From: Nocardioidaceae bacterium | GTDB taxonomy: Bacteria; Actinomycetota; Actinomycetes; Propionibacteriales; Nocardioidaceae | DNA length: 64,000 bases | Direction: 5' to 3' | Assembly: GCA_030447865.1 (NCBI GenBank) | Contig: JAUJOD010000003.1 | Location: 253,099-317,098, forward strand | Part shown: positions 1 through 5,710 of the stretch, piece by piece | Layout: the number at the start of each line of letters is the position of its first letter | Numbering within the stretch: position 1 is the stretch's first letter | Translations under genes and position numbers: made by a program | The notes under the pieces: generated by a model | The model's input: the letters and a program-made list of their open reading frames with translations, nothing else | The model's database searches: none | What the model was told of the DNA's origin: nothing

Positions 1-445
1 AGTAGAGCAGCACTCGCTCTCCGACATGGCCGCCGCTGTCGGAGATGTTAAACGACGTCCCCGGGGTGAAGGAGACGAAGTTGAGCTTGCGTCCCTCGAG
101 CTCCCGCAGCTGTGTGGCGAGCAGCGTAAGGCGATCGGCGTGGTGGCGCTCGTCGGCATCAGACCCGACCCTCAGCTTGGGCAGGTTCTGCCGCGCGATC
201 TGGCCGTTGGAGCAGATATAGACGACGTCGATCCGGTCGACGGTCTCCCAGAGGTGGTCGATGGCCTTGGCGATGACCCCTCGTGCGACGAGGGTCTTGC
301 CGAGGCCGACTTCGTCGGCCACGAGGAAGCGGCGCGTGGGGTCGACTGGGTCCCACAGTCGTTGGTGCACCCGTTCGACGGTGCGAATCTGGAAGTCCTT
401 GAGTCCCTCGAGCTCGCGGGCCAGATCCGGACGGGGAGTGCTCAT
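1..445 (-). CDS. SNF2/DEAD-type helicase, N-terminal part (runs off the left edge)
   Basis: The first 148 codons of a superfamily 2 helicase are visible; the rest lies outside the window. A Q-motif-like DFQIRTV sits near residue 18, and a Walker A motif (ADEVGLGKT, residues 43-51) has the DE-GLGKT form typical of SNF2-like ATPases. The ATG overlaps the stop of the upstream PLD gene as ATGA, so translation is probably coupled. It is the last visible gene of a four-gene minus-strand operon (reader domain, DUF6361, PLD protein, helicase). By family it should be an ATP-driven DNA translocase or helicase; its role in phage defence or restriction is inferred from the neighbours. Whether it also carries a nuclease domain cannot be seen. 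Confidence 0.85.
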   Translation of the reverse strand, partial: MSTPRPDLARELEGLKDFQIRTVERVHQRLWDPVDPTRRFLVADEVGLGKTLVARGVIAKAIDHLWETVDRIDVVYICSNGQIARQNLPKLRVGSDADERHHADRLTLLATQLRELEGRKLNFVSFTPGTSFNISDSGGHVGERVLLY

Positions 446-2268
446 TGCTCGCTCGCTTCCCACACCACTCGCCACAGTTCGAGGAAGTCGGCACTCAACT
501 GCGGCAGCTCGCCTTGTGGGTCCCTCAGGTCCTCGAGCAGTCTGTGCGCTCGGAGCAACGACTCGTCCCCCCTGGCAGCGGCTCGCACCAGCGGTTCGAG
601 CAGCACGAGATCATCGAAGGAGAGCCCGGAGCCGGTGCCGACCCGCTTCTCCGGGTCCTCGTCCTCCCCCTCGGTCTCCTGGAGAAGCCGGTCGAGCAGG
701 TCGTCGACGGACGGGTCACCCAGCAGGAGCGCCAGGTAGCGGAGGATGTCTTCCTGCCTGGCCAGCAGTTCGCGCAGCAGCCGCACCAGCCGGTCATCGG
801 GAGCGTCGACGACGTCGCAAATCAGAACGCAGTCACGGCTCACCGGAGTGTCACCCACCGCGACGCTGGAACTCACCGAGAGGTACGGCGTGAGCCCGGC
901 GAGACTCAGATTTCGCCAGACCGGGCCGTCGGCCAGTGGGCGGGACGGCGTGGTCCGGATACCGACGGGACGGACGGTGGTCGTCGCGCTGAGTCCGTCC
1001 GGATCTGCAGGCAGCTCGAGCGTCAGGCGGAGATCGTACCCGCTGTCCCCGTCCGAGACGAACAGCCGCGGGGCACAGCCGGCGAGTGCTGAGTGCCATG
1101 CTTCGAGCAACCGCTCGGCCCGATATACGGGGTCGGGCTGGGGTTCGAGTTCCTGCGGCTCGTAGCCCTGGGTGATCCGCAGGAATCCTGAGCTGTCGTC
1201 GCCCAGAAGGGCATGCACCCCGCACGCCGAAGGTGGGCCGGAGAGAAGCACCGACAACTCGATGTTGCCTCCGAACGCGGCGCCGGTGCAGTTGGCCGAA
1301 CCGGTGAGCAGGTGCGCCATGCCGTCGGACTGCCAGGCGAAGACCTTGGCGTGCAGACCGCGCGTGAGGTCACCTCCCCCGACGACCGGCTCCGAGTCGT
1401 CCTCGGACTGCACAGCGTCGGCCAGCGGTTGCAGTACCCGGAGCTCGATGTCCCCCAGAGCTCGGGAGCCCAGCCGCTCGAACGTGTCCGGCCGCGATAG
1501 GAGGACCTTCGGGCCACGGCTCTGCGGCAGCCTCCGGACGGACGTTGTGTCCAGAAACGGAGAGATGACCGCCCAAGCGTCGGCGCTCTTCGGGAGCGGC
1601 CACTCGCTCCCGGACGGCGTACCGAGCGGGATAGCTCGGCCTTTGGTGAACGGCTCCGGCAGCGCGAGGCGGGTGCCCCTGAGGCTCTCGCACAGGTCTC
1701 GGATCTGCTCGCGACGCGCGTCCTTGAGCGGGCGCAACAAACTCTCGAGCAGCTCTTCGACGAACGTGCTGATCGGCGCGGGATCGAGAGTGTGTGTGGC
1801 CTCGTCGTCCTCGTCGCAGATCAGCACGGTGTCCCAGGATCGATCACCGGTCAGGTTGCGGCTCAAGCAGGCGAACCGGTGCCGACGCCCACCGTTGCCG
1901 TCGACGAACCGCAGCAGCCAGATCTTTGGGTGGAAGGTGCGCCCCGGTGGCGGTGCGATCTCGGCGACGCAGCCCTCCGCGAAGGCCGCCAGCTTGGGGT
2001 ACGCAGGCGGCACGTGGATCCCAGCCGCCTGGCACAGGACGGTCGTGTGCTCGGCGTGCCGGCGGATCGACTCGAGCAGCGCGAGGGGCGTCGACGCGCC
2101 GTCGACCTCGACCGCGTGCCGCTGGTCATAGGCCGCCATCGCAAGCGGGGCGAGGAGCACCGAGGTGAGGTCGAGCGTGTACGTCGTTGCCAGGGCCCGC
2201 TCAACCCCGAAACCGTCAGGTGGACGCAGCGCATCAGTGAGCAGGTGCCTGCTCTCCGGCTCGAGCAT
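442..2268 (-). CDS. Phospholipase D-like domain protein of the helicase operon
   Basis: A 608-residue protein with two half-sites of the PLD superfamily. The first is an HPK at residues 113-115 followed by SRNLTGD near 136. The second is HAK at 306-308 followed by GSANCTG at 323-329. The HxK(x4)D motif is degenerate because the Asp lies farther away than usual. Bacterial PLD-like proteins beside helicases act as nucleases in systems such as DISARM (DrmC), so a DNA-cleaving or DNA-end-binding role is likely but not shown. The start overlaps the DUF6361 stop by one base, and the stop overlaps the helicase start. No signal peptide or membrane segment is visible, so it should be cytoplasmic. Confidence 0.85.
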   Translation of the reverse strand: MLEPESRHLLTDALRPPDGFGVERALATTYTLDLTSVLLAPLAMAAYDQRHAVEVDGASTPLALLESIRRHAEHTTVLCQAAGIHVPPAYPKLAAFAEGCVAEIAPPPGRTFHPKIWLLRFVDGNGGRRHRFACLSRNLTGDRSWDTVLICDEDDEATHTLDPAPISTFVEELLESLLRPLKDARREQIRDLCESLRGTRLALPEPFTKGRAIPLGTPSGSEWPLPKSADAWAVISPFLDTTSVRRLPQSRGPKVLLSRPDTFERLGSRALGDIELRVLQPLADAVQSEDDSEPVVGGGDLTRGLHAKVFAWQSDGMAHLLTGSANCTGAAFGGNIELSVLLSGPPSACGVHALLGDDSSGFLRITQGYEPQELEPQPDPVYRAERLLEAWHSALAGCAPRLFVSDGDSGYDLRLTLELPADPDGLSATTTVRPVGIRTTPSRPLADGPVWRNLSLAGLTPYLSVSSSVAVGDTPVSRDCVLICDVVDAPDDRLVRLLRELLARQEDILRYLALLLGDPSVDDLLDRLLQETEGEDEDPEKRVGTGSGLSFDDLVLLEPLVRAAARGDESLLRAHRLLEDLRDPQGELPQLSADFLELWRVVWEASEQ

Positions 2269-3455
2269 CAGCCCGCCCCGCCGTCGAGACCGGCCAGCAC
2301 GTCACCCATAAACCGTTGAGCCACTTGCCACCGGTAGTCGAGCCGCACCAGCCCGGCGTACCCGCTCCAACCCGCTCGTGCGTCCGGATAGACGAGGCGA
2401 CTCCTGCGACCCTTCAGCCTCAGCTCCCTGTCGCGTATCAGCTGCTCGGCATGCTCGCTCGAGTGCTCGCCGGCCTCTACCAAGTCGATCCACTGGTTCA
2501 CAAAGGACACGGTCGGGGCACCGATCCGCGGGTTGAGCTGTCGCACGAGTGCCCAGAAGTCCTGCCGTGACCACCCCTCGAGCGCCCCTTCGTGCTCAAG
2601 GTCCTGCACCCACTCATCGGTCTCGGCCGTGTACTGCTCCGTGAGAACGTCGTCCTCGACCAGTCGGGCCAGCATCAGGTTATAGAGGACCGGTGCCCCG
2701 TGCCAGACGTGGTGCAACCGACGGGCGTGGTCGATCCGTGCCCGGTGTTGGTCCGGCATGTCGCCGAACTGGGGATGCTGCCAGATCCAGTCGGCGGCCG
2801 CTGAGTCGGCGTGGGCGCCTAGCCAGGCCAGCACGGAGGTGGACGGGAGACGCACGAAAACCCCCTTCAGCATGTCCGCCTCGTCGGAGGTCAGAGTGAA
2901 GGTCGTCTCGGTAAGCAGTCCATCGGGCTGCGGTGGCAACGCCGAGTCGAGTCCTAGGTCGACCCGCACGGACTCGGCGTCCGCAGCGCTCACCTCGGTG
3001 CTCCACCGCACTCTCTGGGATGCGGTCCGAAAGTAGCCGTCGATGGTTACGTCCCAGCGCCGAAGCCCTAGTCGACCCAACGCCGGCCAGTACACCTGGC
3101 TCGGCATCGTCTTGAGCCTTTCCTGCGCCTGGCTCCCGATCACACCCGCCTGCTCGCCGCCAGCGATCAGTGAGCGGATTAGCTTGACTTCGGCATCCCG
3201 CAACGCCTTCCGTGACTGGTCTCCCGACCAACCATTGCGTGCCACGTCGGCCACCAGCCAAGGGATGAAGAGCAGGTACCGCGCCCGCGTATGAAGCACC
3301 GAGGTCCCGGGGAAGAACGAGTCAGAGAACGCGTCCCTTATGCTGCCAATCCCTAGCTCGTCAACACTCCCTTGGTCCTGAAAATGCTTGACGATCTCCA
3401 TCATGTGCGCGCGCTGCGCATCGTCATGGTCCAACCAACCGAAACGTGACGTCAT
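2268..3455 (-). CDS. DUF6361 family protein
   Basis: A 395-residue cytoplasmic protein. The N-terminus (FGWLDHDDAQRAHMMEIV) and the segments GIGSIRDAFSDSFFPGTSVL and ARYLLFIPWLVADVARNGW match my memory of DUF6361, a family of unknown biochemistry that often travels with PLD proteins and helicases in actinobacteria. The ATG overlaps the stop of the upstream reader-domain gene as ATGA, and its own stop touches the PLD start. This tight coupling argues that the products act in fixed proportion, perhaps as one complex. The function is unknown; a structural or adaptor subunit of a defence system is an inference from context only. Confidence 0.8.
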   Translation of the reverse strand: MTSRFGWLDHDDAQRAHMMEIVKHFQDQGSVDELGIGSIRDAFSDSFFPGTSVLHTRARYLLFIPWLVADVARNGWSGDQSRKALRDAEVKLIRSLIAGGEQAGVIGSQAQERLKTMPSQVYWPALGRLGLRRWDVTIDGYFRTASQRVRWSTEVSAADAESVRVDLGLDSALPPQPDGLLTETTFTLTSDEADMLKGVFVRLPSTSVLAWLGAHADSAAADWIWQHPQFGDMPDQHRARIDHARRLHHVWHGAPVLYNLMLARLVEDDVLTEQYTAETDEWVQDLEHEGALEGWSRQDFWALVRQLNPRIGAPTVSFVNQWIDLVEAGEHSSEHAEQLIRDRELRLKGRRSRLVYPDARAGWSGYAGLVRLDYRWQVAQRFMGDVLAGLDGGAG

Positions 3456-4039
3456 TGCCCGTTGGCCTCACCAGAGTGGTTTGGCCTGTACTTGATCGCG
3501 ATGGACGACTGATACAGCTCGATAGGTGGCGGCTTGGAGGCCAACACCGCGCCTCGTACGACGGCGATCTTCATGTCGAAAATACGCGGCCTGACACCCA
3601 CCTGGGGCACAGCCCAAATGCGATCGAACGCACGGCAGTTTCCCCCAGGAAATCGAGCGAGACCCTGGAGTTTCACGCCGGGAGCCACGCCGACGAAGCA
3701 GATCAGTGGCAGACCGTCGAAGTAGGCGCGGCGTAACGCTCGGTTCTCGAGATGAAGCGGGTCGTCGCCGCGGTACTTGTAGCGGATCGGGCCGTCGGGA
3801 CCTTCCGCTTCGGCGTACGGCCGCATTTGGCCCGGCTCGGTGTACACCGTTCGAGTCGATAGGGCGGCGTCCAACCCGGCGGGTTTGCGGATGCCGCGCT
3901 GACGGTCCATCAACGGAAGCCGGTGACCGTCGTACTCAAATTCGGTCAGCGCGGCCTGGGTCACCAGATCACCGTCGCGGCCGTCGAGCCAGGTCATAGC
4001 GGATTCACGGACCAAGAGGCTGACTCCCGCTTCGAGCAC
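3452..4039 (-). CDS. Restriction-endonuclease N-terminal (reader-like) domain protein without an HNH domain
   Basis: This 195-residue protein resembles the N-terminal half of predicted HNH restriction endonucleases. The shared signatures are LPLMDRQRGIRKP, VYTEPGQMRPYAEAEGPDG, IRYKYRGDDPLHLENRALR and GLPLICFVGVAPG. In those proteins an HNH nuclease of about 100 residues follows. Here the chain ends after a divergent tail and no HNH Cys/His cluster is present. It is first in the minus-strand operon, and its TGA overlaps the DUF6361 ATG, so the short form is probably expressed rather than dead. It may be a DNA-recognition subunit supplying specificity to the PLD protein and helicase (inference). 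The start is a GTG; an internal start at VRESAMTWL is possible. Confidence 0.65.
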   Translation of the reverse strand: MLEAGVSLLVRESAMTWLDGRDGDLVTQAALTEFEYDGHRLPLMDRQRGIRKPAGLDAALSTRTVYTEPGQMRPYAEAEGPDGPIRYKYRGDDPLHLENRALRRAYFDGLPLICFVGVAPGVKLQGLARFPGGNCRAFDRIWAVPQVGVRPRIFDMKIAVVRGAVLASKPPPIELYQSSIAIKYRPNHSGEANGQ

Positions 4040-4444
4040 CAGCTCGTTGTATCAACGGATCGACCGGTTGGGAAGTCGGACCGCTGCGAATGCCGTTCGC
4101 GTCAGCCCCATCGAGTGGGTCTGCCGCCGCGAACCCAGCCGACGCCGTCCTGGCTGGCGTGCGTGTAGCTGGTGCTGTCGCCACCGGCCGCGCACTCTGA
4201 TGTCGGTGAGTAGCCAGGCGACGATGCGCAAGTAGGTCCACTCCTCTCAGGGAGGTACGACGACCGTGTAGCCGTAGCGTGACCAACCCCCAGAACACCG
4301 GGTTGAGCTCCTTGGCCGACTCGGTCTGGCCAACTCGGGCTGCCGGGTGTCCCAAATTGAGTGTTGGTCAGCGGGGCTCTCTGCCAGAGGGCGACCGTAT
4401 CCTTCGCATGCTGCCCAGTGGGTCGCTTCTGCTAGACCTTGACT
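4040..4444. other. Intergenic region between divergent gene sets
   Basis: About 400 bases between the minus-strand reader/DUF6361/PLD/helicase operon and the plus-strand coiled-coil gene. Open frames here have unnatural composition and no recognisable motif. It must hold the promoter of the defence-like operon and probably that of the next gene. I could not identify a convincing -35/-10 pair for the minus strand. Confidence 0.5.
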
Positions 4445-5710
4445 ATGAGCGAGCATCAACGGTCCAAACCTCAGTCCAGCGACCTGGTCGTCAGTCTGGA
4501 TGAGGCACGACTGATGGTCATCGGTCCGCCTGGCGACATTGAGCTGCTTGTTGCGCGGCTGACGGAGTCGATCGCGCAACCGGGTCGTGGAGCTGACGCC
4601 TCGACGATTCCTCCGGCGGACATGGCTGCGCTAGCAGCTACGGGGGTTGCCACACTTGATGCCTCTGGAAGATATGTGCAGCTCTCGAGCGCGTCTCTAG
4701 CCGCCATCAAGGAGCGTATGCCGGACAAGACAGCGGACGGGTTTTATCGCATGGCCGTCCGGGGAGACGGTGGCAGGTACGCAGGACAACTCGTCTGGAA
4801 GCCTGCGAACTTCAACCCTGTGCAGGCAGCTTCCCTCCAGACCGCTGCGGTGGGGATGGCCCTCAAGATGGCGATCCAAGACGTGCAAGCAGCGGTTGCG
4901 CGGGTGGAGGGAAAGGTCGACGAACTTCTGAGGCTGGCGAAAGCGGAGCGGGCAGGCGACGTCATCGGATCGTTTCGCGTGGTGTCCCGCATAGAGCGCC
5001 ATGTGTCCGAGGGTGCGCCCCTCATCTCCGCCGACTGGGACTCGATCGCTGCTCTCGGCCCGTCGCTCGAAAATCTCGCAGAGCGCCTGCGACAGCACCT
5101 CAGGACGTCTATTCAGGCGTTGGACACTGGGTCAGATCTCGAAGACCGTGCTGACCAGATCCGTGAAGTCGCCGAGAGCGAGATGTTAGGACAGACGTTG
5201 CGACTGCTTCAGGTGACTGAGGCGACGCTCCACCTATGGCAGCGACTTCGCCTCCAGCGGGTTCGCCAGGTCGAGCCTCACTTGTTGATGTCGGCTGTTG
5301 AGTCGACTCGTGAGTGGTACCAGGAACAAGCCATCGCCGATGCGCAGCTGATGGAGAGCGTCGGGAAGAAGCTCAGAGACTTTGGGATGCAACGCCCACT
5401 GGAAATCCACCGGCCGCTTTCGCGGAGAGCAGTGCGTAAAGAGTTGCAATACGTTTGGGCGGATACTGCGGAGTTTGCACGCGCCCGCCAAGGGAGTATT
5501 GAGGCCTTACCTGAATACGAAGATCCCGGCGTCCGGGATGCCTTCAGCCAACTCCGCAAAGAAGCGGGCGCCGCCCGCCAAGCCGCTCGCGAGGTCTCCC
5601 GGTCCACGGCACAGATCGTTGGTCGACGGTTCAAGGTGGCAGGTCGTTCGCTTCGCACCACGGCCGAGCGTGCGAACACTCGCCGTCACGCCGATCGGGA
5701 AGACGACTGA
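4445..5710 (+). CDS. Uncharacterised coiled-coil-rich protein beside the defence-like operon
   Basis: The product has about 421 residues and matches no family I recognise. The N-terminal ~120 residues look globular (alternating hydrophobics, VVSLDEARLMVIGPPGDIEL). The centre is long and helical: one stretch (VQAAVARVEGKVDELLRLAK) has heptad-like spacing, and charged helices around residues 200-330 also suggest coiled coil. The tail is Arg-rich (GRRFKVAGRSLRTTAERAN) and could bind nucleic acid or membrane. A TTG six bases upstream (4439) is an alternative start. No good ribosome site precedes the ATG, but TAGACC lies six bases before it, so a leaderless message is possible. It is divergent from the helicase operon and followed by a small gene on the same strand. 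Base composition seems less GC-rich than the core genes to the right. Confidence 0.75.
   Translation: MSEHQRSKPQSSDLVVSLDEARLMVIGPPGDIELLVARLTESIAQPGRGADASTIPPADMAALAATGVATLDASGRYVQLSSASLAAIKERMPDKTADGFYRMAVRGDGGRYAGQLVWKPANFNPVQAASLQTAAVGMALKMAIQDVQAAVARVEGKVDELLRLAKAERAGDVIGSFRVVSRIERHVSEGAPLISADWDSIAALGPSLENLAERLRQHLRTSIQALDTGSDLEDRADQIREVAESEMLGQTLRLLQVTEATLHLWQRLRLQRVRQVEPHLLMSAVESTREWYQEQAIADAQLMESVGKKLRDFGMQRPLEIHRPLSRRAVRKELQYVWADTAEFARARQGSIEALPEYEDPGVRDAFSQLRKEAGAARQAAREVSRSTAQIVGRRFKVAGRSLRTTAERANTRRHADREDD

What the first reader, a model, noticed from the sequence alone, without database searches (positions are those of the whole stretch)
1..4039. Four overlapping genes: reader domain, DUF6361, PLD protein, SNF2 helicase
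All four genes overlap by 1-4 bases, implying a single module. The first protein has the N-terminal half of HNH restriction enzymes but no HNH domain, while a PLD-like protein, a fold used as a nuclease in other systems, is present separately. The set resembles but is not DISARM (no DrmB-like gene is visible). It could be a restriction-like anti-phage system with recognition and cleavage on separate chains.
Basis: partly seen in the sequence, partly recalled or inferred. Interest (0 to 1): 0.72.

Follow-up and report, generated by a model that had tools for sequence, protein, structure and literature searches.

The report
Known Zac defence operon, chimeric first gene
Three of the four overlapping genes are a known candidate anti-phage set (PADLOC's ZacA, ZacB and ZacC), found in the same order in hundreds of bacteria, whereas the fourth, the supposed DNA 'reader', is found only in this genome and looks like an accidental in-frame join of pieces of two unrelated restriction genes.

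Summary
The four overlapping minus-strand genes are real (overlaps of 4, 1 and 4 bases). Genes 2-4 match PADLOC-DB's ZacA, ZacB and ZacC over their full length. At least 565 zacA loci turn up across species genomes, and in the 80 kept the A-B-C order holds wherever the contig continues. So the core is already catalogued as a candidate defence system, although no held paper describes it.

Gene 1 is not part of that module. Residues 1-120 are the 5' part of an SRA-HNH restriction gene (74% identical), cut inside the SRA domain. Residues 122-184 are the last 63 residues of a type III restriction Res subunit (51% identical). Two separate searches meet at the same base (window 3676/3677). The full fusion occurs in no other genome searched (about 570), and no zac locus read has it. 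I read it as a deletion relic that at most supplies a promoter and translation start for zacABC.

ZacB is predicted to be a complete two-lobed phospholipase-D enzyme like Tdp1 and PLD3. ZacC is an intact SNF2-type motor. ZacA is a confidently predicted helical protein without a clear PDB match. The locus sits in a defence island. Moderately interesting, not a new system.

The parts
4046..4054 (-). TGATACAAC, a probable extended -10 promoter element 6 bases before the GTG start of gene 1 (leaderless type)
   Evidence: Same motif (TGATAGAAC, TGCTAGAAC, TGCTAGAAC) at the same distance before three intact SRA-HNH genes L043, L044, L045; DNA similarity to L043 reaches up to window 4070. Promoter function is inferred.
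3677..4039 (-). Gene 1, residues 1-121: 5' part of an SRA-HNH endonuclease gene, truncated inside the SRA domain
   Evidence: 74% amino-acid identity to residues 3-121 of a 297-aa HNH_2 enzyme; 73.5% DNA identity over window 4070-3679; family profile matches TagI, PDB 6ghs
3452..3676 (-). Gene 1, residues 122-195 and stop: 3' end of a type III restriction Res subunit gene
   Evidence: 51% identity to residues 798-860 of an 864-aa Res protein (L167), E 3e-13 in the window's own genome. Junction resolved at DNA level.
2268..3455 (-). zacA (DUF6361), 395 aa, predicted all-helical
   Evidence: PADLOC ZacA E 5.8e-126; Pfam DUF6361 E 1e-53; AlphaFold2 pLDDT 92, no PDB match with E <= 0.001
442..2268 (-). 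zacB, 608 aa, two-lobed PLD-superfamily phosphodiesterase (residues 1-379) plus a C-terminal region
   Evidence: PADLOC ZacB E 5.5e-161; both half-sites conserved in 82 sequences; model pLDDT 88.6 matches PLD3/PLD4 and Tdp1, Z 18-20
1..445 (-). zacC, start of a 1046-aa SNF2-type motor protein; the rest lies outside the window (genome contig C6 250403-253543)
   Evidence: PADLOC ZacC 1133 bits, E 0, on the whole protein; motifs DEVGLGKT, DEFQ, SATP, QREGRVHR intact

Best explanation
The locus is a zacABC operon, a catalogued but apparently unstudied candidate defence system, in a defence island of a probable Nocardioidaceae genome. Gene 1 is not a fourth subunit. It is a chimeric remnant: a rearrangement, probably a deletion, joined the promoter and 5' 40% of an SRA-HNH endonuclease gene in frame to the last ~74 codons of a Res gene that stood just upstream of zacA. 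Both catalytic parts (HNH; Res motor and nuclease site) and about a quarter of the SRA domain are lost. Its remaining role is probably to carry the transcription start and, through the ATGA stop-start overlap, couple translation into zacA. Proposed mechanism of zacABC: ZacC, an SNF2-type ATPase, translocates on invading DNA; ZacB, a monomeric two-lobed PLD enzyme, hydrolyses DNA phosphodiester bonds at or near DNA ends; ZacA, a conserved helical protein, is a scaffold or sensor joining them. Shown: gene content, conserved order, intact catalytic motifs, predicted fold of ZacB, chimeric make-up of gene 1. Inferred: promoter use, translational coupling, deletion as cause, defence function, the DNA substrate and ZacA's role.
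For: zacABC: PADLOC matches over full length; order conserved in 8 other genomes of the family and in the 80 best loci of a scan with 565 confirmed relatives; neighbours are PycC and PycTM, type I MTase and REase, and an AAA ATPase. Gene 1: SRA-HNH match ends at contig base 256775 and Res match begins at 256774; DNA identity switches from SRA-HNH to Res at codons 119-121; upstream promoter-like motif shared with intact SRA-HNH genes; the HNH half is nowhere else in the genome at E<=10; no full-length relative in 198 family or 395 class genomes, which overlap in part; Mod-Res pairs lie upstream of zacA in two relatives, L037 and L041, and about 15 kb from it in a third. SRA truncation: TagI's SRA runs to about residue 167 with a disordered linker 168-192 (PMC6212794), while gene 1 leaves the family alignment at 121. 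ZacB: Z 18-20 to PLD3/4 and Tdp1. ZacC motifs intact.
Against: The chimera is in frame, 195 codons long and has coding-like third-position GC (0.78 and 0.69), so it is probably translated and could have been kept for a function. Only 4 of 45 invariant columns are altered (P73R, D77E, L84P, W114C), weak evidence for decay. Close homologues L037 and L066 also have an upstream gene overlapping zacA, so an upstream partner may be normal even if its identity varies. No phage test of zac was found in the held papers.
Confidence: 0.72

Rival explanations
1. Gene 1 is a working hybrid subunit: the truncated SRA half binds modified DNA, the Res tail docks onto ZacA or ZacC, and cleavage is done by ZacB.
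For: Open reading frame kept across the junction, 4-base overlap with zacA, 74% identity in the SRA half. An intact SRA-HNH gene lies about 0.5 kb upstream of zacA in one other locus, L076, and other modification-dependent or restriction genes (McrC, Mrr-like) occur just upstream of zacA elsewhere.
Against: SRA domain cut about 45 residues before its end by comparison with TagI; found in one genome only; the upstream gene is variable while zacABC is constant.
Confidence: 0.1
2. The junction in gene 1 is an assembly error joining two separate genes.
For: The assembly is a draft (9 contigs) and the genome also carries an intact Mod-Res pair on contig C8.
Against: The Res tail in gene 1 is not a copy of the C8 gene (the Res query matches C8 at 40% over residues 1-847 and gene 1 at 51% over its last 63), and no HNH remainder exists elsewhere, so a mis-join would need two otherwise missing sequences.
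Confidence: 0.05
3. ZacB is not a general nuclease but a Tdp1-like phosphodiesterase or PLD3-like 5' exonuclease acting only on DNA ends, for example protein-capped phage ends.
For: Monomeric two-lobed PLD fold with two half-sites (H113, K115, N138; H306, K308, N326, E337), nearest to Tdp1 and PLD3/4 at Z 18-20, unlike the single-motif PLD nucleases of DrmC or BfiI type.
Against: The same fold includes lipid- and phosphate-acting enzymes such as phosphatidylserine synthase and polyphosphate kinase; fold does not fix the substrate.
Confidence: 0.25

Closest known systems
ZacABC of PADLOC-DB 2.0.0 (PDLC03828-03830)
   Same: All three proteins, full length, order, strand, tight spacing
   Different: An extra chimeric open reading frame precedes zacA here; no published mechanism found
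SRA-HNH modification-dependent endonucleases (TagI, PDB 6ghs)
   Same: First 120 residues of gene 1 and its upstream motif come from a gene of this family
   Different: End of the SRA domain, linker and HNH domain missing
Type III restriction Res subunit
   Same: Last ~74 residues of gene 1
   Different: Helicase and the conserved IVDPHG segment missing
DISARM (DrmC, DrmD)
   Same: A PLD protein and an SNF2 motor in one operon
   Different: No DUF1998 (DrmB) gene on this contig; ZacB is a two-lobed PLD, matching DrmC only around one motif
Dpd (DpdE) and BREX BrxH SNF2 motors
   Same: Weak similarity of ZacC around the helicase motifs
   Different: ZacC scores 1133 bits to its own model against about 52 to DpdE

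Membership tests
ZacABC (PADLOC-DB) | ZacA, ZacB and ZacC all present | tested here: met
   E 5.8e-126, 5.5e-161 and 0
ZacABC (PADLOC-DB) | Adjacent, same strand, order A-B-C | tested here: met
   same order in relatives
ZacABC (PADLOC-DB) | Catalytic motifs of ZacB and ZacC intact | tested here: met
ZacABC (PADLOC-DB) | Protects against phage | not testable with these tools
   no experiment possible; no paper found
SRA-HNH endonuclease (gene 1) | Complete SRA domain | tested here: not met
   similarity ends at residue 120/121; TagI SRA runs to about 167
SRA-HNH endonuclease (gene 1) | HNH nuclease domain | tested here: not met
   absent in gene 1 and absent from the genome as a separate piece
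Type III Res subunit (gene 1) | Helicase motifs and conserved C-terminal IVDPHG segment | tested here: not met
   only residues after that segment remain
DISARM | DrmB, DUF1998 protein in the operon | tested here: not met
   PF09369 matches only contig C3, not C6
DISARM | DrmC-type PLD nuclease | tested here: not met
   24.8 bits against a cut-off of 133 for NF038319; two-lobed fold
DISARM | DrmA helicase and a DISARM methyltransferase | tested here: inconclusive
   no such gene among the neighbours scanned; the neighbouring methyltransferase belongs to a type I set; whole genome not searched for DrmA

The most novel reading that the evidence does not exclude
zacABC is a constant motor-and-PLD chassis that works with interchangeable upstream partners (AddA-like helicase-nuclease, McrC, Mrr, DUF726 hydrolase, SRA-HNH), and the chimera here is a new partner made by fusing half an SRA domain to a Res tail, able to steer the chassis to modified DNA.
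Probability: 0.08. Interest if true: 0.65.

Novelty: new member of a known kind. Interest (0 to 1): 0.32.

Why it matters
It corrects an attractive but misleading reading: a tight overlap with zacA does not make gene 1 a subunit, since unrelated genes overlap zacA in the same way elsewhere. It places the three real genes in a catalogued system that seems unstudied, and adds testable points: ZacB is predicted to be a two-lobed Tdp1/PLD3-like enzyme rather than a DrmC-like nuclease, and ZacA has a confident predicted structure without a clear PDB relative. It also shows how an operon in a defence island may gain a promoter by gene fusion.

Tried and rejected
Literature: ZacABC, ZacB, Zac with other system names, and DUF6361 gave no relevant paper. 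DISARM rejected (see membership test). Gene 1 as a conserved fourth gene rejected: nothing besides zacABC recurs in more than 16 of about 92 zac loci compared. Search for viral relatives of the SRA-HNH family: none confirmed. Plasmid records: no DNA match for gene 1, no protein match for its C-terminal part. ZacA fold: no Foldseek match with E <= 0.001, best VIA Z 3.5, so its fold relationship is open. dN/dS of the SRA half against L043 is about 0.15, but this mostly reflects the time before the fusion and says little about selection since. No tRNA was found within about 15-20 kb on either side that would mark an integration site.

Full report
Observation. The four minus-strand genes exist and overlap as described. 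Gene 4 runs out of the window; the window is bases 253099-317098 of contig C6 of a 3.1-Mb, 9-contig genome, and the full gene 4 is 1046 aa from its ATG. A relative's contig of 99,939 bases (G081 C9) has the same length as the Nocardioides ganghwensis contig NZ_JACXYX010000018.1, with zacA at corresponding places, so the family is very probably Nocardioidaceae (inference).

Genes 2-4. PADLOC-DB 2.0.0 names them ZacA, ZacB and ZacC with full-length matches. In 198 genomes of the family, nine including this one hold full-length ZacB, and the other eight hold zacA-zacB-zacC in order. Wherever the contig continues, zacB and zacC follow. Plasmids carry zacA relatives in 45 records; phage records show one partial match. 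No paper in the held library names the system.

Protein anatomy. ZacB has two PLD half-sites conserved over 82 sequences, FHPK115...RN138...D142...SWD146 and GLHAK308...GS324-N326...N335-E337. Its model (pLDDT 88.6) matches PLD3, PLD4 and Tdp1 with Z 18-20 over about 290 residues, so it is a monomeric two-lobed PLD enzyme, unlike the single-motif DrmC or BfiI type (the latter point from general knowledge of those families). ZacC keeps the SNF2 motifs. ZacA is predicted with confidence (pLDDT 92) as a helical protein; Foldseek and VIA found no convincing relative.

Gene 1. It matches no Pfam, PADLOC, NCBIfam or PHROGs family. Residues 1-120 align with about 300-aa endonucleases that carry HNH_2, a family whose profile matches TagI, the SRA-HNH enzyme. 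The similarity stops at codon 120/121, inside the SRA domain, since TagI's SRA runs to about residue 167 (PMC6212794). Residues 122-184 align with the last 63 residues of Res proteins that begin with ResIII. In the window's own genome the two queries meet at adjacent bases, 256775 and 256774, and base identity switches there. The upstream motif TGATACAAC, 6 bases before the GTG, is shared in slightly varied form with three intact SRA-HNH genes. No genome of 198 (family) or 395 (class, partly overlapping) other than this one has the full fusion.

Where the Res piece came from. Mod and Res genes lie upstream of zacA in two family members, L037 and L041, and in another genome (G393) a nuclease-helicase-Mod-Res row lies a few kilobases beyond zacC. 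A deletion in such an arrangement would leave the Res tail next to zacA; this is inference.

Upstream gene in general. Same-strand genes ending at or near the zacA start include AddA-like UvrD-nuclease proteins of about 1150 aa (nine alphaproteobacterial loci), McrC, Mrr-like proteins, a DUF726 protein and an EcsC-like protein. The tight overlap is therefore a property of zacA's position, not evidence for one fixed partner.

Setting. Beside zacC lie PycC and PycTM (Pycsar), a type I restriction set, and an AAA ATPase with a companion gene. This supports a defence role by association only.

Verdict. A catalogued candidate defence operon with a chimeric leader gene. The relic reading of gene 1 is well supported for its origin; that it has no function of its own is likely but not shown.

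Noticed in passing
L002 13392-14102 and 14090-14701 (contig C6 about 248891-250200): A Pycsar pair next to zacC: cyclase PycC (E 9e-70) and membrane effector PycTM (E 1e-39).
   Followed up: partly
L002 6550-13285: A complete type I restriction set (HsdM, HsdS, HsdR); the HsdR reading frame (1269 aa) extends about 250 aa past its REase_I match and ends in a stretch that looks like an AlbA_2-type domain (by eye, not tested).
   Followed up: no
L002 3955-6201: AAA ATPase of the AriA/PtuA type followed at once by a 285-aa protein without Pfam or PADLOC match; resembles a PARIS-like pair.
   Followed up: partly
window 4439-5710, + strand: Divergent 423-aa gene facing away from the zac operon, weakly similar to proteins directly upstream of zacA in L075 and L077 and directly after zacC in L166 (phmmer E 4e-6 to 4e-4 in a set of 1146 proteins); no Pfam or PADLOC match. 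Possibly a zac accessory family.
   Followed up: partly
L167 49-8751 (also parts in L034, L041, L171): A four-gene row of a conserved unnamed protein (PD-(D/E)XK-like by eye), a helicase-like protein, type III Mod and Res, recurrent near zac in Actinomycetota; the first two genes have no PADLOC match.
   Followed up: partly
L101, L106, L110, L111, L133, L134, L135, L139, L142: An AddA-like helicase-nuclease of about 1150 aa ends at the zacA start in nine alphaproteobacterial loci, most with a second shared gene before it: a candidate five-gene variant of Zac.
   Followed up: partly
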